57,383 nt of DNA from an uncultured Anaerolineaceae bacterium. Its GTDB lineage: Bacteria > Chloroflexota > Anaerolineae > Promineifilales > Promineifilaceae. Of the stretch, positions 791 through 57,382 are shown in pieces. The stretch spans positions 1 through 57,383 of the forward strand of contig CALBTC010000137.1 in the NCBI GenBank assembly GCA_937967805.1, written 5' to 3'. The translations under genes were made by a program, and so were the position numbers. A model generated the notes under the pieces. It was not told the origin of the DNA. It was given only the letters and a program-made list of their open reading frames with translations, and ran no database searches. Each line of letters begins with the position of its first letter. Position 1 is the stretch's first letter.

Positions 791-1350
791 ACAAGCTGCG
801 CCGAATGGCGCACCGTGTAAACAGCGCCGGACGGCCGTAACTCGCTCTGCACCAGTTGAACGGCCGTTACCCCAAATTCCATTTTCGCCAGCGCAACATC
901 CCAATTGAGCGCCCTTGCATTTTTGGCATCTTTTACCCGCCCCAACGTAACGTGTGGACTGAACGGCCGTTTCTCCCGCGGCCAACCCAATGCCACAATG
1001 CGATCTTCGAGCTCTGTCTGCATCGTTTGCAGATTGGCCAAATCCCCGTTCAGACCGGCCCACACCACGCGCGGCCACCTGCGGCTAGGGAATGCGCCCA
1101 CGCCGTTTAGATGCAAACGAAAGGACGTGTGTTGACTGGTTAGTTGAGTTAGCTGGTCTTGCAGGTCAGGGAGTTGGGAAACGGCCGTATCCCCTAAAAA
1201 ACGCAGCGTCAGGTGCAGTTGTTCGGGCCGCACCCAGCGCACCGCTTTGTTGGGCAGTCGCTGTCCCATTTGTGCCGCCGTCTGCAACAGCACATCCTTT
1301 ACCGCTTCCGGCAAATCGATGGCAATGAACAAACGAATCTTTTGGTTCAT
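787..1350 (-). CDS. thpR: RNA 2',3'-cyclic phosphodiesterase (2H family)
   Basis: A 187-residue cytoplasmic 2H phosphoesterase, the ThpR/LigT group, which opens 2',3'-cyclic phosphate ends of RNA (historically called 2'-5' RNA ligase). Both HxTx catalytic motifs are present: LHLTLRFLG near residue 46 and FSPHVTLGRV near residue 132. The length matches the family. It begins RLFIAIDLPE, the normal N-terminus. GGAGGT on the minus strand (plus 1362-1367) lies about 11 nt before the start and touches one arm of an inverted repeat (1368-1429), so initiation could be influenced by that hairpin. It lies downstream of the ubiA-like gene on the same strand, 41 nt away, and may be co-transcribed. Confidence 0.9.
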   Translation of the reverse strand: MNQKIRLFIAIDLPEAVKDVLLQTAAQMGQRLPNKAVRWVRPEQLHLTLRFLGDTAVSQLPDLQDQLTQLTSQHTSFRLHLNGVGAFPSRRWPRVVWAGLNGDLANLQTMQTELEDRIVALGWPREKRPFSPHVTLGRVKDAKNARALNWDVALAKMEFGVTAVQLVQSELRPSGAVYTVRHSAQLV

Positions 1351-1367
1351 GGCCCCATTTTACCTCC

Positions 1368-1429
1368 AGGAGTGGCAGTCCTCCACCTGTATTATGATTG
1401 ATTTAATGAGCCAAAGGACTGCCACTCCT
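1368..1429. repeat. Perfect 15-bp inverted repeat between ubiA-like and thpR genes
   Basis: Arms AGGAGTGGCAGTCCT (1368-1382) and AGGACTGCCACTCCT (1415-1429) are exact reverse complements separated by 32 nt. The right arm lies inside the last codons of the ubiA-like gene and the left arm abuts the thpR Shine-Dalgarno. No T-run follows on either strand, so it is not a standard terminator. It could be an intercistronic mRNA stem or a dispersed REP-like element. Confidence 0.75.
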
Positions 1430-2411
1430 TATCAACAAGCGAGTCAGCGGTGAAGAGCGGGAGTGTAAAGGCCAGAACAATCGCCCAGCGGCTGAGGGGA
1501 TTGACTTGGGGAAGAACGGCCGTAAACAGCAAAAGCAGCATCAAAATATTGTGTGCCATCAACCACGGCGCCATTTGCGCCAGGGGAATTTTGAACCTGG
1601 TCACTTGGAACAGGTAGACAAAACAGATAATCGACAATAGTTGTAGCACAATATTTAAAACCACCGGGTCTTCCCCCGGGCCAAGCGGAAACTTGTCTAT
1701 CACAGGCAATATCAGCGCCAGGGCGTTTAGAATGAGCTGCCAAAACAAAGCATAAATTTGCAGGCGGGCGGGAATGAAGAAGCGGTCGTCGGGCAACGGC
1801 CGTGCCCCCAACCAAATTGCCGTCGTCCGCGTGCCAAACGCATAATCGTTGACCAAGTCGCGCAGGCTGCCGTTGATACCGTTTACCAGCAAAATGTAGA
1901 CAATGATAAATCCGGCTGCCACCCAGGTTTGTCCGGTCGGCTGGCCAACAACCGAAGCGCCAAAAAGCAGCAGCGCCGCCCAACTGGAACCTTGTACTAA
2001 ATCTGTCAGCGGCGGCAGCGGGCTGCGCTTGCCCCAGAAATTGTAAAGCGTCATCCCCATCACCGCCCAGCAAAGCCAGAGCAGGGAACGGCCGTTCCCA
2101 TCCAACAGCCACCACAAAAACAGCAAAATGGGCAGCTGCCCCACCACCCAAAACCACACCTGCCGCACCGTCACCAGCCCGCGTACCAGAGGATAATCAG
2201 CTCGCGACGGCTGGCTGCGGTCTAGCGGCAGGTCGATAATGTCGTTGAGCAAGTAAGCAAACAGGTGGAAGGAAACGGCCGTCGCCAGCAGGACACCGAT
2301 CTGCCAACCCGTTACAAACCCAGTTGCCGTGCCGGCGCCAATGAGCGGCAGAACGGCCGTGTAGCCAAAAATCGCCGTATGCCCAAACCGAAACCAGTCT
2401 CGTGCTTTCAT
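1392..2411 (-). CDS. UbiA-family prenyltransferase
   Basis: Polytopic membrane protein of about 339 residues. The first aspartate-rich motif NDIIDLPLDR and the second DLVNDYAFGTRT match the Mg-diphosphate binding motifs of the UbiA superfamily, which transfers isoprenoid chains to aromatic or other acceptors. About eight hydrophobic segments alternate with short loops. A GTG at 2444 would extend the frame, but it lies in a terminator stem; ATG 2409-2411 begins MKARDWFRFGH, normal for the family. A TATAAT (minus strand, plus 2419-2424) lies only 7 nt before this ATG, so the mRNA may be leaderless. The acceptor cannot be told: no menaquinone, chlorophyll or haem genes are nearby. Confidence 0.85.
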   Translation of the reverse strand: MKARDWFRFGHTAIFGYTAVLPLIGAGTATGFVTGWQIGVLLATAVSFHLFAYLLNDIIDLPLDRSQPSRADYPLVRGLVTVRQVWFWVVGQLPILLFLWWLLDGNGRSLLWLCWAVMGMTLYNFWGKRSPLPPLTDLVQGSSWAALLLFGASVVGQPTGQTWVAAGFIIVYILLVNGINGSLRDLVNDYAFGTRTTAIWLGARPLPDDRFFIPARLQIYALFWQLILNALALILPVIDKFPLGPGEDPVVLNIVLQLLSIICFVYLFQVTRFKIPLAQMAPWLMAHNILMLLLLFTAVLPQVNPLSRWAIVLAFTLPLFTADSLVDKEWQSFGSLNQS

Positions 2412-2418
2412 CCGGCAA

Positions 2419-3713: not shown

Positions 3714-3872
3714 GTTATTTTTGTCAAGTTATTGTCCAGTTTAGTAAAAAATTGTTTAAATGGTGTTAACATTGGATTAAGGCCACATGAATGCACGTTG
3801 CGCCGTTTTCTGGAATGATGTTTGCGGTGGAAACGGCCGTTTCACCACCTGTACACCCCTCATCCGCCGCCA

Positions 3873-6669: not shown

Positions 6670-6922
6670 TTTTCCTTTCCCTTCCCTCATCATAAAACCC
6701 CATTCTCAGCGCTAAACAGAAAATGGGGTTGAGATCATTGATGTGTCAATTTTGGGCAAAGTATAAAAGAAAAAGATCAAGCTGTCTACATAATTGGGAA
6801 GGAGTAATTCGACAATTTTTTGCTGGGCAACGGCCGTTCCCCCTACCAACATCCAAGTTGAACACAGTGATCAAACTTCCTAAAATAGCTCGCAAAATTC
6901 TTTGCAAAAGGATACAACATTC

Positions 6923-7603
6923 ATGAAAGATAAAACATTGGTTGGCGGCATCGTCGTCATGGTAGTTGGCGTCCTACTCATCGGCATCGTCTGGCTTTTG
7001 TTTCTGCAACCTTCCCGCACCCCAAGCCAACCAATCATAGCAATTCCCGTCACAATTGAAGAGGACAGCAGCCGCTACACTGTGTTTGAAATTGTGCCGG
7101 CTGAATCTGAAGTCACCTTTACCCTAAACGAGACACTGCGTGGCCTGCCTACGACGGTTGTTGGCCGCAGCCGGCAGGTAGCCGGGCAAATTGCCGTCGA
7201 TTTTGCTAATCCTGCCGCCAGCAAAATTGGCCCTATCCTTATCAACGCCCGGACCTTGCTCACAGACAACGAGTTTCGCAACAACGCCATTCACAGCTTC
7301 ATCCTCGACAGTGAACCATATGAGTTTATTACATTCACGCCAAACCAAATCAGTGGATTACCGAACGAATTTGTGCCAGACCAACCCATTTCGATACAAA
7401 TAGCGGGCGATTTAACCATACGCGAAGTGACACGGCCGATCACATTTACGGGGACAATTACGCCAAACGGCCGTATCCAAATAACCGGCTCCGCAACCAC
7501 ACAAATAATGCGAGAAAACTTTGACCTGCAAATCCCCAACGCCCCCGGTGTGGCCAACGTCAGTGAAGAAGTATCGTTAACAATTGATTTCGTTACTAGA
7601 TGA
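6923..7603 (+). CDS. YceI-like domain protein with N-terminal membrane anchor
   Basis: About 226 residues. An uncleaved-looking hydrophobic helix (residues 7-29) leads to a single YceI lipocalin-like beta-barrel: YTVFEIVPAESEVTFTLNE, then a short-region like KIGPILINARTLLTDNEFRN, then EPYEFITFTPNQISGL and IREVTRPITFTGTI. YceI proteins bind isoprenoid quinones or related lipids in the envelope. ATG 6923 is chosen because AAAAGGA lies 10 nt upstream and the frame then begins directly at the anchor; an upstream TTG (6902) has no ribosome site. No cytochrome b561 partner is adjacent. Confidence 0.85.
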   Translation: MKDKTLVGGIVVMVVGVLLIGIVWLLFLQPSRTPSQPIIAIPVTIEEDSSRYTVFEIVPAESEVTFTLNETLRGLPTTVVGRSRQVAGQIAVDFANPAASKIGPILINARTLLTDNEFRNNAIHSFILDSEPYEFITFTPNQISGLPNEFVPDQPISIQIAGDLTIREVTRPITFTGTITPNGRIQITGSATTQIMRENFDLQIPNAPGVANVSEEVSLTIDFVTR

Positions 7604-7699
7604 GCATAGCATAAGAAATAGGTACCATCATGGATATATTTTTGGATATATTCTACCAGGAGCTCCTTTAAAAATTTTTAGTGGCCCATGAGTAAGGGG

Positions 7700-7728
7700 G
7701 TGACAGTTTTTATAAAATCGTGTAGACT
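7700..7728 (+). promoter_or_regulatory. Sigma70-type promoter for the structured RNA
   Basis: GTGACA (7700-7705; 5 of 6 to TTGACA), a 17-nt spacer and TAGACT (7723-7728; 4 of 6 to TATAAT). Expected start near 7735. Confidence 0.5.
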
Positions 7729-7734
7729 ATAAGC

Positions 7735-7954
7735 AAGTTCGGTCAGTTTAGGCCTAAGGAAAGAACTCCTCCCCCAAACTGGCACGAGAGAAACGCGACT
7801 GGAACAAGCTGATCGAGCTTACAGTGATGCCGTTGGCGAAAGCCACCCTCCTCCTTAGGTCTTTGGCAGAAACTGGACTGCTCGATGCACACCCCTCCTG
7901 GTGCATGAGCAAACAACAAGAACCGCTCTCTTCTCACGAAGGGAGCGGTTTTTT
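7735..7954 (+). ncRNA. Unclassified structured small RNA, about 220 nt
   Basis: Between a sigma70-like promoter and a strong terminator lies a stretch with dense pairing and no credible ORF. Visible helices: a closing stem CCTAAGGA (7753-7760) with TCCTTAGG (7852-7859); AAGCT-gatcg-AGCTT (7806-7820); a GNRA-capped TGGC-GAAA-GCCA (7834-7845); an 10-bp stem with one bulged G, GCTCGATGCAC with GTGCATGAGC (7880-7910); and the terminator. The size would suit a 6S-like RNA, but I do not see conserved features of RNase P, tmRNA, SRP RNA or a riboswitch class I can name. It could also be a long leader of the mrp operon that usually terminates early, though about 230 nt separate its terminator from mrpA. 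Confidence 0.55.
7921..7954 (+). terminator. Strong intrinsic terminator of the small RNA
   Basis: A 13-bp stem (7921-7933 with 7938-7950, one G-U pair, loop TCAC) runs straight into a T-run. It is one of the clearest terminators in the window. Confidence 0.88.
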
Positions 7955-8053
7955 CTTTGCCCTCTGTCTTTGAACTAAACGAACATCCAACTGTATTTCC
8001 CGGCAATCCATGCCTCATAAAATTCACTATAATTTCGCGCTAATTTAACCAAG

Positions 8054-8082
8054 TTGACTTTTTATCATATTGTTGATAGAAA
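8054..8082 (+). promoter_or_regulatory. Possible promoter of the mrp operon
   Basis: TTGACT (8054-8059), 17-nt spacer, TAGAAA (8077-8082). It would give a leader of about 95 nt before mrpA, in an otherwise AT-rich, gene-free stretch. Confidence 0.35.
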
Positions 8083-8184
8083 TTAAATTAATGCGCAAAC
8101 TGCTGTGCAAGCCCTGTATCTATCAATCTGATTTTTAGAGCTGCTTACCAAGTAAACTGACATTTATCTTGGATTAATCGAGAA

Positions 8185-11124
8185 ATGAATGTCAGTTTTT
8201 CATTGCAGTCATCATCACTTTTTGGTTATTTAATGCAAGTCAACACAGTTTTCATGCCTTTTATTGCTATATTAGCGGCCGCTTTAATCGCAGCCATTTG
8301 CGGCCAAACAAACTGGTTGCAGAGGCGAAACGGCCATAACCACCTTACCATCCTCGCCTGGCTCCTGGCCAGCGCCCCACTTTTTTCATTCTTTCTGCTT
8401 CTGCAACAAGTAAGACTTATCAACAGTGGTGAAACAGTTAAAGCCAGCCTCACCTGGTTGCCCAGTGTTGGCCTAAATTTCGGCTTTTTTCTGGACGGCC
8501 TGAGCCTATTGTTTGCCCTGCTCATAACTGGCATCGGCACGTTGATCATCATTTACAGTGGCTACTACTTCCAAAATGAGCCTTCTGCCTGGCGGTTTTT
8601 AAGCTACCTGTTTTTGTTCATGGCCGCCATGTTGGGTCTGGTGCTGGCAGACGACCTCATTACCCTGTTTGTTTTTTGGGAGGGTACCAGCATCACCTCA
8701 TTTTTGCTGGTGGCCTATAAATTTAAATACCCGGAAGCTCGACAAGGGGCGTTTAAAGCGTTGTTCATTACCGGTGGTGGTGGGATTACGCTGCTGTTTG
8801 GCTTGCTGCTTGTAGCCAACGTCACTAATGAAACCAGTCTGTCTGCCATCTTACAAAGTGGGGAACTGCTGCGCGACAATGCTTTATACCCGTTCATATT
8901 AGGCCTGCTGGCCCTGGCGAGTTTAACCAAAAGTGCCCAATTCCCGTTCCACATCTGGCTGCCGCAGGCCATGAGCGCCCCGACCCCTGCCAGCGCCTAT
9001 CTACATTCTGCCACGATGGTGAAGGCCGGCATCTATTTGATGGCCCGCTTCAATCCTGTTTTAGGAGAAACAGAGCTGTGGTTTTGGCTGTTCAGCATCG
9101 TGGGGCTGATAACAATGGTGTTGGGTGCCTACCTGGGGTTAAAACAAAACGACCTTAAGGCGCTGTTGGCCTATTCCACTATCAGCCAACTGGGTGTGTT
9201 GATGATGCTCATTGGCCAGGATACAAATATTGCCTTCAAGGCGCTAGTGGTGGGCGTGCTGGCTCACGCCCTGTACAAGAGCGCGCTTTTCCTTATAGCG
9301 GGCACGGTAGATCATGAGAGCGGCACTAGGGATTTGCGGCTGCTTGGTGGTTTGCGGCAAAAGATGCCCATTACGGCCGTTCTCGCCATCATCGCCGGGC
9401 TATCTATGGCCGGACTCCCGCCCATGTTTGGCTTTTTGGCCAAAGAGACACTGTTGGCAACGGCCGTTCACCCTACCCTGCCCGTCATTGTTAGTTGGTT
9501 ATTGGCGGCCGCTTCTGTAGTAGCCGGCGCGCTGCTGCTGACCCAGGCCGGCTTGCTGGTACACGGCACCTTTTGGGGCAAACCGGGCGAAGCCGCCGCC
9601 AAAGCACATGAGGCCCCAAGATTGATGCTGCTGGCTCCGGCCATTCCGGCACTGCTCTCGCTGGCCATTGGGCTGCTGCCAGAGCCGGAAGGGTTAGCGG
9701 CGCTGCTGGCAAAAGGAGCCGGGGCTGCCTTTGGCGATGAGGTGAAAGTTTCCTTGGCTTTGTGGACGGGGCTGAATGTGCCACTGTTATTGTCTGTGGT
9801 GGCCGTTAGTTTGGGCGTCACGTTATTCTATTTCCGGCATCCCATCCGGCAGTGGCAAAATCAATTTGTACCTACCCTTGATTTGAACCGTGGTTTTGCC
9901 GCCACGCTGAACGGGATTGATTGGCTGGCCAACCAGGTGACGCGGCTGCAAAACGGCCGTCTCCGTTTTTACCTCTCCGTTATCATTTTGGGCATGGTTG
10001 GTCTGGTGATTCTGTTCACTCAGGGACAGTTCAACCAACTGCTGCTCACCGTGCAAAATAACGTTCGTTTTACCTGGACAGGCAGCCAGGACTTATTGCG
10101 CCTGGTGGCGATTTTAGTGGCTATGGGGGCTGCCATCGCCAGCGTGCTGCTTAAGCGGGACTTTGCCGCCATTGTGGCGCTGGGGGCTTCCGGGCTGAGC
10201 ATCGCCGTGCTGATGGTGCTGGAACCCGCACCCGACGTTGCCCTGGTACAAATTGTGGTCGATATTTTGTCGGTGGTTATCCTGGTGCTGGCGCTGCGAC
10301 TGCTGCCGCGCAAGGAGCGGCAAAATGCACTGGCGCTGAATATAGAGGTAGGGAATCTCAATAGAATTCGCAATCTCATCGTGGCGATTACAAGTGGATT
10401 GGTGGTAACGGTTATCACCCTGTTCGCCCTCACCTCTAGGGAACGAGACAGTATCGTTACGCCCTTTTTTACCGAGAATGCCAAACCATTAACGGCCGCC
10501 AAGGACGTTGTTGGGGCCATCATCGTCGATTTCCGGGCACTGGACACGATGATTGAGATCGCCGTCTTTAGCATGGCAGGGTTGGGGATGTTTACGCTGC
10601 TGCGACATGCGGCGCGGGCATTGGGCGACACGGTGGGTGAGGAACGGCCGTTTGCCATCAACCTACCTTCATTAAATATTTTTGGCCAGCGTACCTCCGC
10701 CTTCATCCAGGCCCTGGCTCGCCTCGCCTTGCCGCTGGCTATTGTCATCGGTGCCACCCACATGATGTACGGTCACGACCAGCCCGGAGATGGTTTTACC
10801 GCCGGTGTCATTATTGGCCTGGCCGTCGCTTTCACCTACGTCGTGTTCGGCTATGCCGAGACGCGCCAGCGGTATAAATGGATCACGGCTCCTTTGATTG
10901 CTTCGGGCATTTTTCTGCTGCTGTTTGTGGGAATTTCTGGCTGGCTAATTAACGGCACCTTTTTATCCACGGTGGACTACGGTGCCATGCTGAATCTGTC
11001 CTTACCCACCGGCTTCAATTTAAGCAGTTCCTTTTTATTTGAAGTTGCCATTTGCCTGAGCGTTTTGGGCAGCGTCTTTTTTATGCTCAGCACGCTGGGC
11101 CATCCGGAATTAGGAGAAGTTTGA
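8185..11124 (+). CDS. mrpA: Mrp-type Na+/H+ antiporter subunit A fused to subunit B
   Basis: A 979-residue membrane protein, the largest subunit of the multisubunit cation/proton antiporter. Residues about 40-600 are a NuoL/MrpA proton-channel module (FVFWEGTSITSFLLVAYKF, SAQFPFHIWLPQAMSAPTPASAYLHSATMVKAGIYL). Residues about 635-715 match the DUF4040/MbhD-like part and about 760-810 the MbhE-like part. From about 820 a whole MrpB-like domain follows (MMYGHDQPGDGFTAGVIIGLAV), and there is no separate mrpB gene, so A and B are fused. The start is uncertain: ATG 8185 has a weak ribosome site, and ATG 8233 would also leave a full protein. The stop shares its last base with the mrpC ATG. Confidence 0.93.
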   Translation: MNVSFSLQSSSLFGYLMQVNTVFMPFIAILAAALIAAICGQTNWLQRRNGHNHLTILAWLLASAPLFSFFLLLQQVRLINSGETVKASLTWLPSVGLNFGFFLDGLSLLFALLITGIGTLIIIYSGYYFQNEPSAWRFLSYLFLFMAAMLGLVLADDLITLFVFWEGTSITSFLLVAYKFKYPEARQGAFKALFITGGGGITLLFGLLLVANVTNETSLSAILQSGELLRDNALYPFILGLLALASLTKSAQFPFHIWLPQAMSAPTPASAYLHSATMVKAGIYLMARFNPVLGETELWFWLFSIVGLITMVLGAYLGLKQNDLKALLAYSTISQLGVLMMLIGQDTNIAFKALVVGVLAHALYKSALFLIAGTVDHESGTRDLRLLGGLRQKMPITAVLAIIAGLSMAGLPPMFGFLAKETLLATAVHPTLPVIVSWLLAAASVVAGALLLTQAGLLVHGTFWGKPGEAAAKAHEAPRLMLLAPAIPALLSLAIGLLPEPEGLAALLAKGAGAAFGDEVKVSLALWTGLNVPLLLSVVAVSLGVTLFYFRHPIRQWQNQFVPTLDLNRGFAATLNGIDWLANQVTRLQNGRLRFYLSVIILGMVGLVILFTQGQFNQLLLTVQNNVRFTWTGSQDLLRLVAILVAMGAAIASVLLKRDFAAIVALGASGLSIAVLMVLEPAPDVALVQIVVDILSVVILVLALRLLPRKERQNALALNIEVGNLNRIRNLIVAITSGLVVTVITLFALTSRERDSIVTPFFTENAKPLTAAKDVVGAIIVDFRALDTMIEIAVFSMAGLGMFTLLRHAARALGDTVGEERPFAINLPSLNIFGQRTSAFIQALARLALPLAIVIGATHMMYGHDQPGDGFTAGVIIGLAVAFTYVVFGYAETRQRYKWITAPLIASGIFLLLFVGISGWLINGTFLSTVDYGAMLNLSLPTGFNLSSSFLFEVAICLSVLGSVFFMLSTLGHPELGEV

Positions 11125-11453
11125 TGGAACTTTTAACCGCAATTGCCATTGGCACACTGTTCGCCGTGGGCATTTACCAGATGCTGCGCCGTAACGTCAT
11201 TCGCTCGGCGATTGGCCTGATTATTTTGTCGAGCGGCATCAACTTGTTTTTGCTCAGCACCGGCGCTTTTCTAGGCACAGAACCAGCTTATGACGGTGCA
11301 GCCAATCCCAGCGATGCCCTGCCCCAGGCGCTCATTTTGACGGCCATTGTCATTAGCATGGGCGGGCTGGCATTTGTGCTGTCGCTGCTGGCCGTCATTT
11401 CGGCCCGCTATCAGACCAGCAACATTGATGAAATTGACAGGCTGAAGCAATGA
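11124..11453 (+). CDS. mrpC: Mrp antiporter subunit C (NuoK-like)
   Basis: A 109-residue, three-helix NuoK-like subunit (IRSAIGLIILSSGINLFLLSTG, DALPQALILTAIVISMGGLAF). The ATG at 11124 overlaps the mrpA stop (TGATG) and has GGAGAA 10 nt upstream. The stop overlaps mrpD as ATGA, giving strict translational coupling through A-C-D. The upstream in-frame ATG (11052) lies inside mrpA and is rejected. Confidence 0.93.
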   Translation: MELLTAIAIGTLFAVGIYQMLRRNVIRSAIGLIILSSGINLFLLSTGAFLGTEPAYDGAANPSDALPQALILTAIVISMGGLAFVLSLLAVISARYQTSNIDEIDRLKQ

Positions 11454-12937
11454 ACCATCTTGCTTTGTTACCGATTCTCATTCCATTTTTCGGGGCGGTG
11501 ATTGCCCTGTTTTTGATGCGCGCGCCGCGCTGGCAAGGGTATTGGAGCCTGGGGGTGTTGGGCACGGCCGTTTTCAGCAGCAGCTATCTTTTGTGGACGG
11601 TTCATGCAACAGGCGAAGCTATCGTTTTTTACGGCGGTGGCTGGATAGCACCCTTTGGCATTGCCATCGTGGGTGACCTGCTGGGCGCGCTCATGGCCCT
11701 GATGAGCCAGGCAGTGCTGCTGCTAGGCACCCTCTACGCTCTGGGCGCTAAGGATAAAAACGCGCGCTATCCCGGCTTCTACCCCCTTTTTCTCATGCTC
11801 ACTACCGGCCTGACGGGCACGTTCCTGACCGGCGACCTGTTCAACCTTTTTGTTTTCACCGAACTGCTGGTCATCTCCGGCACGGTGCTCACCGCCATCT
11901 CCGATGACAAATTGGGAGCTGAAGCCGCCTACAAATATTTCTATATCAGCCTGCTGGCCGCCACCTTTTTACTCCTGGCCAACGGCACGCTGTACGTCTC
12001 TTATGGCACGCTCAATCTGGCCGATCTGGCCGAGCGCATCGCCCAAAATCCAGACGTGCCGCTGCTCACCACCAGCATCGCCTTTTTAATGGCCACTTTC
12101 ATGATTAAGAGCGCCGTCTTCCCGTTCCATTTTTGGCAGCCGGATTTTCATACGGCCGCACCAACGGCCGTCTCCGCCATGCTCTCTTCGGTGGTAGTGA
12201 AGCTGGGCGTGTATGGCTTCTTGCGTATGACCACCCTGCTGTTTGTAGAACAGGCCGCGCTGATTCAAACGCTGCTGGTAGTATTGGGCGTGATCGGCAT
12301 CTTTTTTGGCGGCCTGTCGGCCATCGGCACGCACAACGTTAAGCGGATGCTGGCTTATTCCACGCTGGCCCAAATTGGCTTCATTTTGGTGGGCATTGGC
12401 TGGGGCACGCCGCTTTCCATCGCCGCGGCCCTGGTGTTCACCGTCAACCACAGCCTCATCAAAGCCGCCATGCTGATGCTGGCCGGGTTTGTGGCCAGCC
12501 GCGCCTCGGTGAAGTCAGCGGCTTTTGCCGTGGTGACCGGGCTGGGCCAGCAGCTGCCGCTGGCGGGCGGGCTCTTTTTTGTAGGGGCGCTGGCGCTGGC
12601 CGGCATTCCACCGACCAACGGGTTCATCAGCAAGCTGCTGCTGTTTAACAGCGGCGTGGCGGGAACGCAGCTGCTGGTGCTCAGCCTGATGGCGTTGGGC
12701 AGCCTGGCCACGCTCATCTACACCATGCGCGCTTTTCAGCGGATTTGGTGGGAGCCGCAGTTGGATACGGCCGTCACCCTCAAACCCACCGGAGATAACT
12801 TGATCGCTCCGGCCTTGCTCATAGGGCTGGTCGTGGCGCTGGGGTTATGGGCCGAGCCGCTGGTGCAGCTCACCGATGCCACCACGCGCTGGCTGGCCCA
12901 GCCGGAATTTTACATTACGGCTGTTTTAGGCAATTGA
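11450..12937 (+). CDS. mrpD: Mrp antiporter subunit D (NuoM/N-like)
   Basis: A 495-residue proton-channel subunit with about 14 helices. Typical segments are FNLFVFTELLVISGTVLTAISDD, MIKSAVFPFHFWQPDFHTAAPTAVSAMLSSVVVKLG with the channel lysine, and VKRMLAYSTLAQIGFILVGIGWG. It starts at an ATGA overlap with mrpC. It forms the antiporter core with MrpA. The 17-nt gap to mrpE contains an ACAGGAGAA ribosome site. Confidence 0.94.
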   Translation: MNHLALLPILIPFFGAVIALFLMRAPRWQGYWSLGVLGTAVFSSSYLLWTVHATGEAIVFYGGGWIAPFGIAIVGDLLGALMALMSQAVLLLGTLYALGAKDKNARYPGFYPLFLMLTTGLTGTFLTGDLFNLFVFTELLVISGTVLTAISDDKLGAEAAYKYFYISLLAATFLLLANGTLYVSYGTLNLADLAERIAQNPDVPLLTTSIAFLMATFMIKSAVFPFHFWQPDFHTAAPTAVSAMLSSVVVKLGVYGFLRMTTLLFVEQAALIQTLLVVLGVIGIFFGGLSAIGTHNVKRMLAYSTLAQIGFILVGIGWGTPLSIAAALVFTVNHSLIKAAMLMLAGFVASRASVKSAAFAVVTGLGQQLPLAGGLFFVGALALAGIPPTNGFISKLLLFNSGVAGTQLLVLSLMALGSLATLIYTMRAFQRIWWEPQLDTAVTLKPTGDNLIAPALLIGLVVALGLWAEPLVQLTDATTRWLAQPEFYITAVLGN

Positions 12938-12953
12938 CACACAGGAGAAGCAA

Positions 12954-13433
12954 ATGCACTATCTGACGTTTATGATACCGATTTGGCTGCTTTATCTGCT
13001 GCTGACGGGTAACTGGGCGCTGAACAATTTAGTGACGGGATTCATTCTGGCCGGTTTGGTGGTTGTTTTGGTTCGTCCGGCGAAACGGCCGTTTGCCTGG
13101 AAGCGTCTGCCCGACGCCCTGCTTGCCTCGGTCCTGTATCTGCTTAGGCTGTTTTGGGACCTGCTGGTCAGCGGCATTCAAGTTTCTCGCATCGTGCTTA
13201 CGCCTTCATTGCCCATCAAGCCCGGCATCGTCGCCATCCCGTCACACTGTGAAACCGATTTGGGGGTGGCCCTCAGCGCCCATGCCATCACCTTGACGCC
13301 GGGAGAACTGGTTATTGAAATTGATGAAGCCGGCGTCATGTACACTCACATGCTGGATGCAACCGCACCCGAGAAAAAAATAGCCGAAGCTCAAAAAGAG
13401 CGGCGGGACCTATTGAGCCGCATCTTTGCCTAA
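12954..13433 (+). CDS. mrpE: Mrp antiporter subunit E
   Basis: A 159-residue subunit with two or three N-terminal hydrophobic helices and a cytoplasmic C-terminal domain. PSHCETDLGVALSAHAITLTPGELVIEID is the family signature (usually ...NSITLTPGT...). AGGAGAAGC lies just upstream of ATG 12954. It is the assembly subunit of the Mrp complex; length and position are normal. Confidence 0.92.
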   Translation: MHYLTFMIPIWLLYLLLTGNWALNNLVTGFILAGLVVVLVRPAKRPFAWKRLPDALLASVLYLLRLFWDLLVSGIQVSRIVLTPSLPIKPGIVAIPSHCETDLGVALSAHAITLTPGELVIEIDEAGVMYTHMLDATAPEKKIAEAQKERRDLLSRIFA

Positions 13434-13461
13434 ACACAAAACGATTGGAGCGAAACCAACT

Positions 13462-13737
13462 ATGGCACAAGTTTTAAATGTAACCTTGCAGGCAGCCCTT
13501 GTTATTCACACTTTGCTGCTGGCCTTTGTCGTCTACAAAGTGTGGCGAGGTAAAGAAATCATGGAGCGACTGGTGGGGGCAGATATTGTAGCCACCCTCA
13601 CAATTGGCATCCTTGTGCTCACGGCGCTGATTCAGTCCAACGGCATTTACATTGATGTGGCTCTGGGATTAGCGGCTTTGGGCTTTGTAAGCACCATCGC
13701 CCTGGCTAAATATGCGGCCGACGAGCAGATGTTTTAA
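13462..13737 (+). CDS. mrpF: Mrp antiporter subunit F
   Basis: A 91-residue, three-helix subunit (VYKVWRGKEIMERLVGADIVATLTIGILVL), including the conserved Asp in RLVGAD. The true start is taken as ATG 13462, after TTGGAGCG; the frame opens earlier (13426), inside mrpE, but those codons do not resemble MrpF. Confidence 0.88.
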   Translation: MAQVLNVTLQAALVIHTLLLAFVVYKVWRGKEIMERLVGADIVATLTIGILVLTALIQSNGIYIDVALGLAALGFVSTIALAKYAADEQMF

Positions 13738-13746
13738 GGAAAATCG

Positions 13747-14079
13747 ATGTCTACGATTACTGAAATTGGCGTGATTATTGCGATTTTTATTGGCACCTTT
13801 TTTTCCATCGTGGGTGTGCTTGGTTACCTCAGGTTGCCCGATGTCTACACCAAGCTGCACGCTTCTGGCAAGGTAGGTATCTTTGGCGTCGTGCTGCTGC
13901 TCATTGCTACCATCATCTGGTCACCCACCAACTTTAACGCCGGGCGTGGTCTTATCCTCATGGCACTTCTTTTAATCACTGGGCCCGTTACGTCTCATGC
14001 CATCAGCTCAGTTGCATACCGGCTGGGCATTCGCCTGGAAAAGTCCATCAGAGACGATCTGGCTGATAAAACACCATAA
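13747..14079 (+). CDS. mrpG: Mrp antiporter subunit G
   Basis: A 110-residue, three-helix subunit containing FFSIVGVLGYLRLPDVYTKLHASGKVGIFGV, the family hallmark. It follows mrpF by 9 nt with AAGGAAA as ribosome site and closes the set A(B)-C-D-E-F-G. It is followed by 16 nt and a strong ribosome site for the exchanger gene, so the operon continues. Confidence 0.92.
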   Translation: MSTITEIGVIIAIFIGTFFSIVGVLGYLRLPDVYTKLHASGKVGIFGVVLLLIATIIWSPTNFNAGRGLILMALLLITGPVTSHAISSVAYRLGIRLEKSIRDDLADKTP

Positions 14080-14095
14080 CTGGAGGAATATCTTC

Positions 14096-15019
14096 GTGGC
14101 TATCTTACTTGACGTTCTCATTATCGTTGCCTGTATTGTCGGTTTGTGGCGTGGCGCGGAAATGGTGGTTAATTCCGCCACCCATATCGCGCGCAAAATC
14201 GGCATGTCTGATCTGGTCATTGGCCTGACCGTCGTGGCTATCGGTACATCGGCACCGGAATTTGCCGTTACCGTTGTGGCTGCGCTGGAGGGACAGTCAG
14301 ACATCTCTGTGGGCAATGTCGTCGGGTCCAACATCTTCAACCTCGGCTTCATTTTGGGTGGGCTGGCGCTGCTGCGCGGGATTGCCACCACCAAAACCAT
14401 GGTGTATCGTGATGGCGGCATGCTCATCGGCACGACCATCCTGCTCATTATCTTCCTTTGGGATCTCACCTTGAGCCGTTTTGAAGGTGTGGTCCTGTTG
14501 ATCATTTTGGTTACTTACCTCGGACTACTTATCTATCGCCGTTCAGAAAGCGATGAACATATTCCTGAAGGAAACTTTAGCTGGCTAGACGTTCCGAAGT
14601 TTATTCTAGGAATCGCCATTATTGTCGTCAGCGGGCATTTTTTCGTGGAAGCCGCTTCTGATCTGGCGCGCCTGATTGGCATATCCGAGTGGGTGATTGG
14701 CGTTACAATTGTGGCCGTTGGCACCTCCGCTCCAGAAATTGCCACGTCGCTGGTGGCTTTGCTGCGCGGACAATCGGGCATGTCGGCCGGGAATCTGGTA
14801 GGCAGCGATCTGTTTAATTTGCTTGGGGTTTTGGGTTTGGCCGGCCTGCTTGTTCCGTTAACGGTCAATCCGGCAGCCCAGGGCAGCATCTTTTTGCTGG
14901 GCGGCATGGTTATAGTGGTGGTGGTCATGATGCGTACCGGCTGGCGCATGTCTCGCTGGGAGGGTGGCTTGCTTATCACCATTAACCTGGCGCGCTGGGC
15001 GATGGATTTCACGCGTTAA
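14096..15019 (+). CDS. CaCA-family Na+/Ca2+ exchanger-like protein
   Basis: About 307 residues made of two homologous halves. Each carries the alpha-repeat of calcium/cation antiporters: GTSAPEFAVTVVAALEG with GNVVGSNIFNLG in the first half, and GTSAPEIATSLVALLRG with GNLVGSDLFNLL in the second, separated by a short loop. This is the YrbG/CaxA-like arrangement, exchanging Ca2+ for Na+ (or K+). The start is GTG 14096, with TGGAGGA 9 nt upstream; longer frames from 13997 run inside mrpG. Placed behind mrpG, it could use the Na+ gradient made by Mrp. Confidence 0.9.
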   Translation: MAILLDVLIIVACIVGLWRGAEMVVNSATHIARKIGMSDLVIGLTVVAIGTSAPEFAVTVVAALEGQSDISVGNVVGSNIFNLGFILGGLALLRGIATTKTMVYRDGGMLIGTTILLIIFLWDLTLSRFEGVVLLIILVTYLGLLIYRRSESDEHIPEGNFSWLDVPKFILGIAIIVVSGHFFVEAASDLARLIGISEWVIGVTIVAVGTSAPEIATSLVALLRGQSGMSAGNLVGSDLFNLLGVLGLAGLLVPLTVNPAAQGSIFLLGGMVIVVVVMMRTGWRMSRWEGGLLITINLARWAMDFTR

Positions 15020-15034
15020 GACGAATAGCTTTTG

Positions 15035-16822: not shown

Positions 16823-16830
16823 CCATATCG

Positions 16831-17613: not shown

Positions 17614-17633
17614 CGATTGACTCCTAGATTTTT

Positions 17634-17663
17634 TAACGCAGAGGCGCGGAGACGCAGAGAGAT
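17634..17663. repeat. GCAGAG-rich dispersed repeat fragment
   Basis: A tract reading AACGCAGAGGCGCGGAGACG and then CAGAGAG, with a GCAGAG-like unit repeated. Similar GCAGAG(G/A)C tracts recur between genes in many bacterial genomes. It lies 20 nt upstream of the permease start on the minus strand. Confidence 0.5.
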
Positions 17664-17784
17664 TTCGGGACTGTGCTTCGCATTCTGCAAATTTTAATTC
17701 CTCAACCGAATTATAGTTGGTCCCTAGAATCATGCGATTTATTAGACCTGTTTCTGGCAGCGAGATTCGTTAAATGGACACATC

Positions 17785-17800
17785 CATGATAAAAATCATG
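17785..17800. promoter_or_regulatory. Operator-like dyad CATGAT-AAAA-ATCATG
   Basis: A perfect 6+6 inverted repeat with a 4-nt spacer, 33 nt before the hydantoinase ATG, in the position of a promoter-proximal operator. No regulator gene is adjacent to pair with it. Confidence 0.35.
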
Positions 17801-17832
17801 TCGGATTGAGCAATTTGTCAGGAGGTAATGGC

Positions 17833-39538: not shown

Positions 39539-39564
39539 ATTGTCCATGCTGATGTGTTTGTGAT

Positions 39565-42500: not shown

Positions 42501-44334
42501 GGTGGCGGGCCATCTGGTTGGCGCGCTGGTTGAGCTGGCGGTAGGTGAGCTGTTGGTCTTCATAAACGATGGCAATGTCGTGCGGCCGTTCCTCGGCCTG
42601 GGCTTCGATAAGCTGGTGGATGCAAACGGCCGTATCGTAGGCAACGGCCGTATCGTTCCAATCAACCAGCAGTTTTTGAATCTCGGCTTCGCTGAGGAAG
42701 GCAGTCTCGGCCAGAGTGCGATTGCCATTTTGGGCCGCGTTTTGCAGGAAGGTGGCAAACTGGGTTTGCATGGCGGCGATGATCTCTGGGGGAAAAACGG
42801 CCGTGTCGTATACCCAGGTCAAGCGCGATTGGTCCGGCGTGAGCAGCAGCGCCAGTTCCGTTCCGGCCAGCGGCGTAAAATCAGTGGCGGAAGCAGCCGA
42901 TTGCACCAGAACGGGCAGCAAAGCGCCATCCACTTTGGGCCGCAGGGATTCCAAATCGGGCTGGCGCAGGAAGATGTCGCGGTTGAACGTTTTGCGCTTG
43001 CTTTGCAGCGTCTCTAAATCGGCTTGTAATGCGGCGAGCGTATCGGCAACCGAGGTGGTGCTATCGGTGTTGACCTGGAAGGGCACCTGGGTGGCGAAGT
43101 AGTTGGCGAAGCGGCCAACTTCATCAGCCAGAGCAGGCAGGCTGAGGGCAATATCGAAACTGCTGCTGCCGCTGAGGCGGGCCAGGAAGGCGGCAAAAGC
43201 GGCCGTCAGCGTCTGCGCCTCACCCGAAACGCCGGCGGGCAGCGGCATGACGGCCGTGCCATAATTTTGACCGATGGTCGTGCTGCTGTGATCGGCGTAA
43301 GGCAATTCGACGGCACGCATCTGGCTCAGGCGGCGCAGCCAGTAGCCTTCCTGCCGCACGATGGTGTCGTTAAGGGCGGTGAGATCGGCGATGGTGGCGG
43401 CGTCCAGGCCGGGCAGCTGCTGGTTGAGGCTGAATTTTGTGGGGGAAACGGCCGTGCCGTCTAACGTCTGCAAACCGGAGAGCACAATCGAGCCGTTGGC
43501 GGTGGCTACAGTGATGGATTCATCGTCAGCAGAAATGATTGTGCCGGGAACAGCCTGCCCTGAGCTTGCCGAAAGGGCCATTGTCGGTTCGCCTTGTTTT
43601 GCAGCGGTGGGGATGAGGAGACGGCCACTCACGTTCAATTTCGGCAGTGCCAGCGGATTGGCATAGCCGCCAAATTGCAGTGCGTTGACCAGAGCGACCA
43701 GCTTGTCGGCCGGTTGCGTCCAATCCAGCGTGGCGGCGGCGGCTGGACGGTCGTATTTGCCAAAGTAGGTCTGCTCCGCCAGATTCTGCGAACGGGGCTG
43801 CAAGCTGTTGTTCTCGATACCTTCCACCAGTTCGGTGAAGGATGCAATGCCCGCTTCGTACGCTTTCACGTTGAGCGTGAAGGCGGTTTCACCCTCCGCA
43901 ATGTCGAAAAGCTGCTGGACGAGGATGTTGCCCTTGTCGATGCCGCTGCCCATCTCGTGCCAGGTGACGCCGTGTTGGTCCGCCTGGTGCAGCAGCGCCC
44001 AGGAGGTGGCGTACAGGCCGGCAAATTTGGGCAGCGGGCCGTCGTGGAAGTTGATGGCTCCCCGTTGGGGCATACTCAAAATGGCATCGGGGATGATTCG
44101 CAGGTTGGTGATGCTCAGGAAATAGTCGAAGGGTGGCTGCTGGGCCAGCGTTTCCGGCAGGCTTTTGCCCGGAATCAGGACGGGCAGATCTTTCGCGGCT
44201 GCCCAGTTGGTGATGGCCGGTGATTCAGTAATCACGCCGCGCACATCGTGACCGCGTTCCAGCAAAATTTCGGTGCATTGGATGAGCAAAGATTCTTCGC
44301 CCATCACATAACAGCTAAATAAAGTGCCGCTCAT
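39565..44334 (-). CDS. NRPS: formyltransferase, half C domain, A split by monooxygenase, T
   Basis: A 1589-residue synthetase and probably the first gene of the cluster. Residues 1-200 are a formyltransferase N-domain (NFHDGPLPKFAG: Asn95, His97; GIDKGNIL: Asp133), followed by a short FMT C-like part (265-295). Residues 330-535 resemble only the C-terminal half of a condensation domain; no HHxxxDG is present. The A domain starts at 555 and is interrupted after FDISVLELF (766) by a luciferase-like FMN monooxygenase of the MupA/Atu3671 type (about 805-1165, VWTPERHFHAFG, RVGISFASGW). It resumes at 1175 and ends with NKKTDRKAL. The carrier serine is 1511, followed by a basic tail. Pocket residues DILQMGMIWK read as glycine. 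Embedded monooxygenases in Gly modules (myxothiazol/melithiazol type) oxidise the bound glycyl unit. Residues 1316-1342 are encoded by repeat-like DNA. Confidence 0.93.
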   Translation of the reverse strand: MSGTLFSCYVMGEESLLIQCTEILLERGHDVRGVITESPAITNWAAAKDLPVLIPGKSLPETLAQQPPFDYFLSITNLRIIPDAILSMPQRGAINFHDGPLPKFAGLYATSWALLHQADQHGVTWHEMGSGIDKGNILVQQLFDIAEGETAFTLNVKAYEAGIASFTELVEGIENNSLQPRSQNLAEQTYFGKYDRPAAAATLDWTQPADKLVALVNALQFGGYANPLALPKLNVSGRLLIPTAAKQGEPTMALSASSGQAVPGTIISADDESITVATANGSIVLSGLQTLDGTAVSPTKFSLNQQLPGLDAATIADLTALNDTIVRQEGYWLRRLSQMRAVELPYADHSSTTIGQNYGTAVMPLPAGVSGEAQTLTAAFAAFLARLSGSSSFDIALSLPALADEVGRFANYFATQVPFQVNTDSTTSVADTLAALQADLETLQSKRKTFNRDIFLRQPDLESLRPKVDGALLPVLVQSAASATDFTPLAGTELALLLTPDQSRLTWVYDTAVFPPEIIAAMQTQFATFLQNAAQNGNRTLAETAFLSEAEIQKLLVDWNDTAVAYDTAVCIHQLIEAQAEERPHDIAIVYEDQQLTYRQLNQRANQMARHLRHLGVGPETIVGVFMDRSIEMMVALVGIHKAGGAYLPLDPTYPKDRLAFMVEDTATPVLLTQKHLVASLPPHQAQVVRVDADWEQIAEQSGENVFSGVAPHNLAYVIYTSGSTGKPKGVMVQHGNVVNFFVGMDDRIPHDPPDTWLAVTSTSFDISVLELFWTLARGFKVIIFDDKTREDVTAVPEPPKNDKPIDFSLFYFSSDESEEGITNKYHLLLEGAKFGDKYGFSAVWTPERHFHAFGGLYPNPSVTGAAIAAITENVQIRSGSCVLPLHSPIRVAEEWSVVDNISNGRVGISFASGWQPNDFVLRPGNYADRKEIMFRDIEVVRELWRGGTITMKNDLGKDVEVKTLPHPVQKELPIWVTAAGNPETFREAGANGFNILTHLLGQSVDELAEKIKVYRDAYEQAGHAGKGIVSLMLHTFIGDDVDEVREIVRGPMKQYLSSAMNLVRAAAWHFPTFKQKAEETGRSPFEIFDEEDLTPEDVDALLNFAFERYFETSGLFGTPRSALHMVNRLKEIDVDDIACLIDFGVPSTVVLQHLDRLNELKNLAEPKLATEDFSIPAQIERHNVTHFQCTPSMASMLLLDERNAAALGKVPTVMVGGEALPAALAQQLKQIVPGRVINMYGPTETTIWSSTYEVTGEETAVPIGTPIANTQIYILDQHMQPVPVGVAGDLYIGGDGVVRGYHNRPELTEERFIPLSVIGNRLSVNGTDNGSPNTDHRIPNTVYRTGDLARYRADGNIDFLGRADFQVKLRGYRIELGEIEALLNAQESVREAVVVAREDTPGDKRLVAYVIMQPGQKLDSTVLKEALRADLPEFMVPATYVPMTSFPLTPNKKTDRKALPAPGQVLVEPQTVYVAPTNDLEQKIAEIWQRLLNVPQVGLNDNFFDLGGHSLLTVQAHRQLKEVVDKEISITDMFRFPTIRTLADFLNEDDGSNGSEHRSPTAVEQSVDRAASRREAMMQRRQRRQRVR
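40309..40389 (-). repeat. In-frame CCGATTA-type repeat insertion before YRTGDLA
   Basis: Codes for residues about 1316-1342 of the split-module NRPS. The DNA is built of CGGTATT / CCGATTA / CCGATAA units, like the spacer repeats at 19.2 and 52.2 kb, at the same linker as the insertions in modules A2 and A3 of the big NRPS. Confidence 0.8.
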
Positions 44335-56779: not shown

Positions 56780-56801
56780 GCCAGGTTTTTTACGATTGAA
56801 A

Positions 56802-56838
56802 AAGCCCCGCCTTCTGGACAAGGAAGCGGGGCTTTTTT
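56802..56838. terminator. Bidirectional intrinsic terminator
   Basis: Stem AAGCCCCGC (56802-56810) with GCGGGGCTT (56826-56834), extended by TTC/GAA, flanked by A on the left and six T on the right. It serves both the ATPase gene and the convergent glucosidase gene. Confidence 0.88.
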
Positions 56839-56905
56839 GCTATCTTAGGATTTACGCAACACTTGGTCGCCCGCGAATGCGGGCGTGACACATTCAATTG
56901 TTGCT

Positions 56906-57382
56906 TTAAGTAAATCCGTTTTGGGCGATGACGGAGCGATACCAGAGGGCGCTGTCTTTGAGGATGCGTTCCTGCGTGTCATAATCGACCCAGACAATGC
57001 CAAAGCGCTGTTTGTAGCCAAAGGCCCATTCAAAATTATCAAACAGAGACCAGACGAAGTAACCCGCCAGCGGTACGCCAATCTGTATGGCCTCGTGAAT
57101 TTTGGCCAGGTAAGTGCGCAGGTACGCTTGGCGGCGCGCGTCGGCGATACGGCCTTCACCATCCGGCCCATCACTGTAACTGGCACCATTTTCAGTGATG
57201 TACAGCTTGCCGGGACGATAATCATACTCCAGCCGCAGCAGCAAATCACGAATGCCTTCGGGAGCCACTTCCCAACCCATCTCCGTGTAGTTATCGTATG
57301 GTTCCAGCGTGGGCGGCTGGTTGTTTACGGCCGTTTCATCCCGAGCAATCGTGCGGAAATAGTTGTTGACGCCTAAAAAGTC
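56906..57382 (-). CDS. GH1 family beta-glucosidase, 3' part (gene runs off the window)
   Basis: The C-terminal 158 residues of a glycoside hydrolase family 1 enzyme. The visible protein begins DFLGVNNYFRTIARDETAV, contains the nucleophile motif LYITENGASY, and ends with the conserved GYFVWSLFDNFEWAFGYKQRFGIVWVDYDTQ, where Glu/Trp bind the sugar at subsite -1. The reading frame is open to the window edge, so the start and acid/base part (TxNEP) lie outside. It is expected to hydrolyse beta-glucosides in the cytoplasm or after export. The codons for ETAV (57327-57334) are one of the ACGGCCGT copies. Confidence 0.93.
   Translation of the reverse strand, partial: DFLGVNNYFRTIARDETAVNNQPPTLEPYDNYTEMGWEVAPEGIRDLLLRLEYDYRPGKLYITENGASYSDGPDGEGRIADARRQAYLRTYLAKIHEAIQIGVPLAGYFVWSLFDNFEWAFGYKQRFGIVWVDYDTQERILKDSALWYRSVIAQNGFT

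What the first reader, a model, noticed from the sequence alone, without database searches (positions are those of the whole stretch)
831..57334. HIP1-like iterated palindrome ACGGCCGT spread over the whole window
About 94 exact copies (manual count; small error likely) against about 1 to 1.5 expected from composition. Copies sit in every reading frame, mainly as Thr-Ala-Val, Asn-Gly-Arg or Arg-Pro-(Phe/Leu/Val) codons, and also in spacers, so protein selection does not explain them. Flanks prolong the dyad (GGAA...TTCC). Cyanobacterial HIP1 (GCGATCGC) is the known parallel; I know of no described equivalent with this sequence. It could be a methylation, repair, uptake or chromosome-structure signal, or the trace of a directed substitution process.
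Basis: seen in the sequence. Interest (0 to 1): 0.8.

Follow-up and report, generated by a model that had tools for sequence, protein, structure and literature searches.

The report
HIP1-like genome palindrome in Chloroflexota
One group of Chloroflexota bacteria carries the eight-letter palindrome ACGGCCGT (or a sister form with other outer letters) about one to two thousand times per million bases, mostly kept letter for letter between relatives, and these genomes nearly all carry a methyltransferase of a kind that in related lineages sits beside a NotI-type restriction enzyme; it looks like an independent counterpart of the unexplained HIP1 palindrome of cyanobacteria.

Summary
The window is Chloroflexota, near Ca. 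Leptofilum. The nearest held genome, G001, has 12,866 copies in 7.7 Mb. Of 396 genomes of its class, 19 have 1-2 copies/kb; the 17 with a usable rpoB fall in one clade, whose other members carry TCGGCCGA (G009), GCGGCCGC (G189), flank-free CGGCCG (4) or have lost the octamer (5). Copies are kept: 48 of 56 aligned window copies are identical in G001 against 26% of GC-matched 8-mers; third positions at unchanged amino acids agree 97% inside, 61% outside. A ~660-aa amino-methyltransferase occurs in 18 of 19 ACGGCCGT genomes, G009 and G189; outside the clade it lies beside a NotI-family endonuclease in 15 of 25 genomes, inside in 2 of 25. Best reading: a new HIP, target of a mostly orphan NotI/EagI-type methyltransferase. 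Methylation and function are inferred; exceptions exist, and a kinship-corrected test has no power.

The parts
831..57334 (.). 94 copies of the palindrome ACGGCCGT, starts at 831 860 963 1181 1516 1796 2088 2275 2353 2607 3262 3833 5162 5370 5511 6830 7467 9373 9460 9953 10644 11564 12164 12767 13085 15832 17205 17869 18331 19160 19503 19570 20028 20709 21219 21317 22568 22917 23696 23798 24020 24518 24938 25115 25808 25874 26398 26561 27089 27570 27821 29334 30408 31187 31401 32180 32377 34196 34294 34348 34735 35836 36071 36443 36743 37428 37509 39644 40550 41617 41948 42626 42644 42797 43250 43448 44994 46131 46305 47235 47460 47796 48150 48695 48910 49055 50237 50519 50956 52057 52751 54504 54671 57327
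   Evidence: spacing mean 607, CV 0.92 against 0.98 +- 0.09 for random placement
3833..3840 (.). copy in the spacer between genes 2514-3626 and 4003-4692
6830..6837 (.). copy in the spacer between genes 5611-6693 and 6902-7603
6902..44334 (.). stretch with orthologues in G001 contig C93 (JADLAX010000093.1); 11 orthologous genes of this stretch were used for the conservation tests
   Evidence: first 20 kb of C93 aligned, the rest through the protein matches; conservation

Best explanation
ACGGCCGT is a highly iterated palindrome (HIP) of one Chloroflexota clade (Promineifilales-like). Its core CGGCCG is most likely the target of an amino-methyltransferase (by inference N4-cytosine, since the core holds no A or T) related to the enzymes of NotI/EagI-type restriction-modification systems and mostly without its endonuclease here. 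Once the enzyme was solitary, methylated sites became useful as a genome-wide mark (for strand or self discrimination in repair, recombination or replication), and exact copies are kept by site-specific selection or by repair that restores them. The outer base pair is part of the word that is kept and drifts between lineages as a dialect: A..T, T..A, G..C. Shown: enrichment, clade, dialects, conservation, co-occurrence with the MTase, MTase-NotI adjacency in relatives. Inferred: that this MTase methylates the site, which base, and the use of the mark.
For: Enrichment beyond composition and codon usage. One clade: 19 of 396 genomes of the class have 1-2 copies/kb; of 191 genomes of the phylum none but G001 exceeds 0.2/kb. 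Dialects on one core: G009 7,668 TCGGCCGA and 85 ACGGCCGT; G189 216 GCGGCCGC and 0 ACGGCCGT in 140 kb. The G189 dialect was found by prediction: of 15 MTase-bearing genomes without the two known octamers, looked at in pieces of 4-20 kb, 1 (G189) showed a new octamer, 6 showed CGGCCG at 2.3-5.4 fold, 8 little or nothing. Conservation: 48 of 56 aligned window copies identical in G001 against 25.8% of GC-matched 8-mers; third-position identity at unchanged amino acids 103/106 inside, 4477/7320 outside; same codons 87/90 inside against 57% outside; 70% within 4 bases of the site, so the word itself is kept. MTase: strong profile hits in 50 of 396 genomes, among them 18 of 19 ACGGCCGT genomes (Fisher p 5e-17, not corrected for kinship), G009 and G189; of the 7 ACGGCCGT genomes not in the query alignment, 6 hit. 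PF12183 (NotI family) lies beside the MTase in 15 of 25 MTase-bearing genomes outside the clade (4 at 116-197 bits, 11 at 27-56 bits, cut-off 22) and in 2 of 25 inside (p 2e-4). NotI/EagI specificities are recalled.
Confidence: 0.56

Rival explanations
1. Binding site of a chromosome-structure or segregation protein (nucleoid or SMC type). The MTase is a clade marker without a causal part; dialects follow changes of the DNA-binding protein.
For: Spread over coding and other DNA alike (1.92/kb in ORFs of 250 aa or more, 1.70/kb outside, 200 kb of G001); sharp 8-bp footprint; octamer present in G141 without an MTase hit; close pairs are fewer than random (under 50 bp: 19 against 33.3 and 11 against 20.0 expected on two G001 stretches) and spacings under 300 bp show a weak 11.0-bp phase in one of the two stretches (mean vector 0.23 on 100 spacings; 0.10, 0.14 and 0.04 in the other three tests).
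Against: No regular spacing: CV 0.95 against 1.00 +- 0.05 and 1.14 against 0.99 +- 0.06. A palindrome has no orientation, so no polarity signal. Does not explain the MTase family in 20 of 21 octamer genomes. Three pieces with plasmid- or phage-like genes carry it at 3.0-3.7/kb (picked by a close pair, so biased upward).
Confidence: 0.18
2. Directed substitution: a methylation-linked repair or conversion process creates and restores the octamer without any use for it (Elhai's GmeC mismatch-repair ratchet, or conversion between genome copies).
For: Single-base variants at positions 2-4 are not enriched but reduced in sum (O/E with copies masked: G001 0.60, G009 0.66, G189 0.75, window 0.82), and only 1 of 56 aligned window copies is a single-base variant in G001 (4 of 64 in the other direction), as if one-offs were restored. 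Mobile-looking pieces carry the word too.
Against: Elhai's ratchet needs a GC formed with the base outside the MTase core (PMC4390886 section 3.4 part 1); here GC lies inside CGGCCG, so the outer base and its dialect change are not predicted. Third-position identity at 5-10 and 11-30 bases (0.69, 0.63) is close to background (0.61), so there is no wide repair shadow.
Confidence: 0.13
3. DNA uptake sequence of a competent lineage (DUS/USS type).
For: Density (1-2/kb) and lineage dialects resemble DUS (recalled); the word is conserved between orthologues.
Against: Palindromic, while the Pasteurellaceae and Neisseriaceae words are not (PMC1939737, passages). Not enriched in spacers: 3 of 94 outside called genes against 8.5% of the bases. 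Single-mismatch forms of an uptake word are about 11-fold over expectation (947 against 86, A. pleuropneumoniae, PMC1939737 table 6); here all single-mismatch forms together are 0.75-1.34 fold (sums over the positions). Competence genes were not looked for.
Confidence: 0.06
4. By-product of codon or amino-acid usage.
For: 51 of 91 genic copies read Thr-Ala-Val.
Against: Synonymous shuffles reach 23 at most against 91; all three frames used; the same codons agree 57% outside against 97% inside; nine other genomes that encode a relative of the window's Mrp protein have 14-123 copies each.
Confidence: 0.01

Closest known systems
HIP1 (GCGATCGC) and alternate HIPs of cyanobacteria (Elhai 2015, PMC4390886: abstract, sections 2.3, 2.4, 2.5.3, 2.6, 3.3 and part 1 of 2 of 3.4 read)
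   Same: Palindromic octamer, 0.5-2.5/kb, clade-wide, replaced by sister words in some members (e.g. TCGATCGA for GCGATCGC), soft palindromic extension, MTase proposed for the inner hexamer. In G001 and the window deviations are most frequent at positions 1 and 8, as in HIP1; not so in G009 and G189.
   Different: Another phylum and another word; core CGGCCG; the outer pair takes three values (A, T, G) on a constant core; one-off forms 0.75-1.34 fold instead of about 11-fold for the Synechocystis 10-mer (1830 against 160; Chi, an 8-mer, 2.5-fold; PMC1939737 table 6, passage; simpler expectation there); the GC needed by the GmeC model lies inside the core. The MTases were not compared with the cyanobacterial ones.
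NotI/EagI-type restriction-modification systems (specificities recalled)
   Same: Core palindrome; MTase family adjacent to PF12183 genes in relatives.
   Different: In the HIP clade 23 of 25 MTase-bearing genomes have no PF12183 hit, and the target is accumulated, while in pieces of 4-20 kb of seven R-bearing genomes outside it is 0.4-1.8 fold.
Solitary MTases with a housekeeping use (Dam/GATC, CcrM/GANTC, M.Ssp6803II GGm4CC)
   Same: Orphan MTase, genome-wide target.
   Different: Targets of Dam and CcrM are not accumulated some 70-fold (recalled). M.Ssp6803II (abstract in the listing) acts on the inner GGCC only.
DNA uptake sequences (DUS/USS) and Chi
   Same: Very many copies of a short word; lineage dialects (DUS, recalled).
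   Different: DUS are not palindromes and favour non-coding DNA (PMC1939737, passages); Chi is not a palindrome.

Membership tests
Highly iterated palindromes (HIP, general sense of Elhai) | palindromic word of 5-8 bases at 500-2,500 per Mb, an outlier among all words | tested here: met
   1,638 per Mb in the window, 12,866 in 7.7 Mb of G001; top octamer of the window
Highly iterated palindromes (HIP, general sense of Elhai) | spread over coding and non-coding DNA and over the whole genome | tested here: met
   whole-genome count and 200 kb of coding/non-coding counts for G001, not for the window's own genome
Highly iterated palindromes (HIP, general sense of Elhai) | genome carries an MTase able to methylate the word | tested here: inconclusive
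   MTase family linked to NotI genes in 20 of 21 octamer genomes; specificity not measured; none in the window
Highly iterated palindromes (HIP, general sense of Elhai) | one-off forms biased to the outer positions | tested here: inconclusive
   G001 position 1 O/E 2.26, positions 2-4 0.70, 0.51, 0.61; window 1.81, 0.71, 0.57, 1.73 (last on 7); G009 1.08, 1.45, 0.30, 0.53; G189 0.75, 0.96, 0.34, 1.11
HIP1 proper | sequence GCGATCGC, cyanobacteria | tested here: not met
   other word, Chloroflexota
NotI/EagI restriction-modification system | PF12183 endonuclease with the MTase | tested here: not met
   2 of 25 MTase-bearing genomes of the HIP clade; none in G001
NotI/EagI restriction-modification system | MTase specific for GCGGCCGC/CGGCCG | not testable with these tools
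   needs methylation data or an enzyme assay
DNA uptake sequence | preferred uptake of DNA with the word | not testable with these tools
   needs transformation
DNA uptake sequence | non-palindromic, favoured in spacers | tested here: not met
   palindrome; 3 of 94 outside 27 called genes

The most novel reading that the evidence does not exclude
The methylated octamer is a self mark, in the manner of Chi, read by the HerA-NurA end-resection machine: in six clade members of all three octamer dialects (G009, G189, G306, G365, G380, G385) the MTase is followed by a NurA-type gene, and in 2 of the 5 of these whose gene order I printed HerA follows a small conserved gene. DNA with the lineage's own outer base would be spared or repaired and DNA with a foreign dialect degraded, so that selection keeps thousands of exact copies, disfavours near misses, spreads the word to resident plasmids, and lets the dialect act as a barrier between lineages.
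Probability: 0.1. Interest if true: 0.93.

Novelty: new variant of a known kind. Interest (0 to 1): 0.78.

Why it matters
HIP1 was described in 1995 and has stayed unexplained, partly because it was known from one phylum, where anything that follows cyanobacterial descent can seem linked to it. A second, independent HIP with three octamer dialects on one core, a clade with losses, and a candidate MTase whose relatives still sit beside an endonuclease gene gives a comparative replicate. It points to solitary methyltransferases as a source of HIPs, it speaks against the GmeC ratchet as a general cause (the GC is inside the core, yet the outer base is fixed and changes), and it makes the question testable by methylome sequencing and by swapping MTases between dialects.

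Tried and rejected
C5 methyltransferases as the common factor: 9 of 24 HIP or CGGCCG-rich genomes have no PF00145 hit; a C5 MTase with a GHKL ATPase shared by G001 and G009 was not found among the other C5 enzymes compared. Ordinary PF01555 enzymes: many per genome; the only type I saw recurring was the split-motif ~660-aa one, by inspection of a capped list. Specificity-determining residues: 3 columns conserved in at least 14 of 15 A..T enzymes differ in both G009 and G189, one of them (486) also in the four octamer-less enzymes; no conclusion. One-clade tests: A..T enzymes alone rejected (p 0.0015), A..T plus G189 not (p 0.1), A..T plus G189 plus octamer-less not (p 0.43); on rpoB the genomes with A-type enzymes are not one clade against B-type (p 0.003), so exchange or old duplication. 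Kinship-corrected association: no power. Fold search: split class-I MTase core, substrate not told. Plasmid collection, near mode: no match to window 4000-19000. PMC6329791 (passages): three lake Chloroflexi genomes, two of them CL500-11-like, methylate GANTC, TTAA and GCWGC, not CGGCCG; not shown to be of this clade. Xu, Lawrence and Durand 2018 on HIP1 is not held under the DOI I tried and is only recalled.

Limits of the counts: GCGGCCGC and CCGGCCGG were not surveyed class-wide, so further dialects may exist. The A1 search scored only 3 candidates per genome; 149 of 396 genomes hit at E 1e-10, and I counted as strong the 50 at 439 bits or more (the next genome, G382, scores 376). G365, G390, G374, G177 and G362 are not on the rpoB tree; G365 and G390 are counted to the HIP clade by their octamer, and G374, G177, G362 to the outside. 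G362 has a PF12183 hit on another contig, not counted as adjacent. The rpoB and MTase trees are the quick kind (SH-aLRT only). After the recount of orphan MTases outside the clade I lowered the best explanation from 0.60 to 0.56 and raised the first two rivals by 0.01 each.
Full report
CHECK. The window holds exactly 94 ACGGCCGT, 831 to 57334. Dinucleotide shuffles give 0.97 on average, 4 at most. Expectations by Markov order 0-6 are 1.3, 1.1, 2.9, 5.3, 9.8, 37.7, 79.9; the high orders are not independent of the copies, since 94 of 157 CGGCCG lie in the octamer. In 27 called genes (52,491 bp) lie 91 copies; shuffles that keep proteins and codon usage give 13.7, at most 23 in 200. All frames are used (51/20/20). 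Spacing is near random (CV 0.92 against 0.98 +- 0.09).

SOURCE. Pfam scans of 26 ORFs show ordinary bacterial genes. The 979-aa Mrp-type ORF (8185-11124) has its best genome contigs match in JADLAX010000093.1, Anaerolineae bacterium SJ142, 77% identity; I call that genome G001. The G001 MTase described below is 82% identical to two proteins named Candidatus Leptofilum, a genus NCBI places in Promineifilales. The window's own genome is not held. Window 6.9-44.3 kb has its orthologues on G001 contig C93.

CLADE AND DIALECTS. In 396 genomes of the class of G001 (drawn evenly by the tool from a larger group), 19 have 0.99-2.1 ACGGCCGT per kb: G001 12,866, G141, G175, G202, G222, G242, G252, G262, G306, G322, G353, G365, G370 14,867, G375, G380, G385, G390, G395, G400; next are G289 (0.51/kb) and G159 (0.42/kb), the others are under 0.2/kb. 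In 191 genomes of the phylum only G001 is above 0.2/kb. TCGGCCGA is at 1.5/kb in G009, 0.3/kb in G159 and G359, under 0.2/kb elsewhere. G189 has GCGGCCGC, 216 in 140 kb. In G009 and G189 ACGGCCGT is absent from 240 and 140 kb (expected 7.6 and 2.6). G159, G289, G359 and G212 have CGGCCG 7-12 fold over a dinucleotide expectation in 15-20 kb pieces, with no fixed outer base. Genome-wide CGGCCG against GCCGGC is 21,019 to 132 in G159, 13,814 to 51 in G189, 21,032 to 864 in G001; such ratios also reflect scarcity of GCCGGC. On an rpoB tree of 60 genomes (quick method) one clade of 28 (SH-aLRT 100) holds G009, G189, the four flank-free genomes, 17 of the 19 ACGGCCGT genomes (G365 and G390 gave no rpoB hit) and five genomes without the octamer (G044, G076, G122, G297, G335) nested among them.

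CONSERVATION. Of 56 window copies aligned to G001 by blastn (77% identity), 48 are identical, 1 has one mismatch, 7 have three or more; control 8-mers are identical in 19%, GC-matched ones in 26%. Reverse: 49 of 64 identical, 4 with one mismatch. By codon alignment of 11 genes: 42 of 59 window copies identical, 9 over gaps, 1 with one mismatch, 7 with three or more; reverse 43 of 60. At unchanged amino acids third positions agree in 103 of 106 inside copies and 4,477 of 7,320 outside; the same six codons agree in 87 of 90 inside against 57% outside. Agreement is 0.70 within 4 bases, 0.69 at 5-10, 0.63 at 11-30, 0.60-0.61 beyond. In the rpoB region (all 16 comparisons): G242 to G262 16/16 and back 16/18, G242 to G370 18/20, G252 to G322 12/13, G380 to G395 4/4, G202 to G385 4/5, G222 to G252 3/4, G001 to G370 9/14, G001 to G242 8/14, G370 to G353 7/17; towards genomes without this octamer G001 to G044 2/7, to G076 0/7, to G009 0/4, to G189 0/5, to G289 1/4, G370 to G122 0/6. 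Controls there are 59% for G242/G262, 30% for G242/G370 and 6-16% for the rest.

ONE-OFF FORMS. With the copies masked and an order-3 model, O/E at positions 1-4 is 2.26, 0.70, 0.51, 0.61 in G001; 1.08, 1.45, 0.30, 0.53 in G009; 0.75, 0.96, 0.34, 1.11 in G189; 1.81, 0.71, 0.57, 1.73 in the window. All positions together: 1.34, 0.82, 0.75, 1.28. For the Synechocystis 10-mer GGCGATCGCC and a Pasteurellaceae uptake word single-mismatch forms are about 11-fold, for Chi 2.5-fold (PMC1939737 table 6, passage; simpler expectation, so only the contrast counts). This HIP behaves in a more all-or-none way.

METHYLTRANSFERASE. C5 enzymes (PF00145) are missing from 9 of the 24 HIP or CGGCCG-rich genomes searched. 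A ~660-aa protein with a split PF01555 domain (DPMMGGGTT near residue 80, DPPY near 476) recurs. Its profile A1 (12 rows, all from ACGGCCGT genomes, so picked for recurrence and leaning to them) hits at 439 bits or more in 50 of 396 genomes: 18 of 19 ACGGCCGT genomes (not G141), G009 (frameshifted, two pieces), G189, the five clade members without the octamer, and 25 others. Of the 7 ACGGCCGT genomes not in A1, 6 hit. No hit at E 1e-10 in G159, G289, G359, G212. Of 15 MTase-bearing genomes without the two first octamers, one (G189) revealed a third octamer, six have CGGCCG at 2.3-5.4 fold, G201 1.8 fold and seven nothing clear (pieces of 4-20 kb).

NOTI LINK. Beside the MTase in G252, G158 and G084 lies a NotI-family endonuclease gene (PF12183, 179-197 bits); in G201 it is broken; in G189 a weak member (42.6 bits). 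By place, PF12183 matches lie beside the MTase in 15 of 25 MTase-bearing genomes outside the clade (G084, G158, G185, G201 at 116-197 bits; eleven at 27-56 bits) and 2 of 25 inside, where the other 23 have no PF12183 hit at all. Genome-wide CGGCCG/GCCGGC in the 15 is 0.19-1.0 in 12 and 2.1-2.4 in 3; in the 10 without an adjacent gene it is 0.29-0.93 in 6 and 1.29-1.75 in 4, so an orphan MTase alone does not make a HIP. NotI (GCGGCCGC) and EagI (CGGCCG) specificities are recalled.

LIMITS. The octamer changes about three times on the tree, so co-occurrence with the MTase is mostly shared descent. MAGs are incomplete. No methylation data exist here. Literature searches listed no paper that reports, in title or abstract, a HIP outside cyanobacteria or this word as one; the library lacks most subscription papers.

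VERDICT. A real, strong, clade-wide HIP of Chloroflexota with dialects, most likely the mark of a mostly orphan NotI/EagI-type methyltransferase. New variant of a known kind.

Noticed in passing
window 19232-44334: Large assembly-line block: ORFs of 4177, 2140 and 1589 aa on the minus strand beside a 4'-phosphopantetheinyl transferase; the 1589-aa protein joins formyltransferase, AMP-binding, luciferase-like monooxygenase and carrier domains. Of the three only the 1589-aa ORF was scanned.
   Followed up: no
L161, L166, L168, L171, L172, L214: The MTase is followed by a NurA-type gene in genomes of the A..T, T..A and G..C dialects, and by HerA in L172 and L161: a possible link between the palindrome and end resection.
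   Followed up: partly
L381, L418, L369 (IMG/VR contigs): Pieces with ParA-like, FtsK-like, ParB-like, DnaC-like and PAPS-reductase-like genes carry ACGGCCGT at 3.0-3.7/kb, denser than the chromosomes; three of 120 pieces found through a close-pair pattern in a scan that stopped at its limit, so biased upward.
   Followed up: partly
G189, G159: GCCGGC, the inside-out hexamer, is nearly absent: 51 in 8.0 Mb and 132 in 4.1 Mb.
   Followed up: no
L083 1369-4210, L082 1435-4198: C5 MTase next to a GHKL ATPase with weak BbrUII/HgiDII and MutL likeness. The ATPase is 94% identical between G001 and G009, the MTase 78%, while their rpoB is 77% identical, so at least the ATPase looks recently exchanged.
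   Followed up: partly
L081 (G001 C90): A C5 MTase region of 3.9 kb with no copy of the octamer and no CGGCCG, consistent with recent arrival.
   Followed up: no
G001 C26: Fewer close pairs of the octamer than random (30 under 50 bp against 53 expected over two stretches) and a weak 11.0-bp phase of short spacings in one stretch.
   Followed up: no
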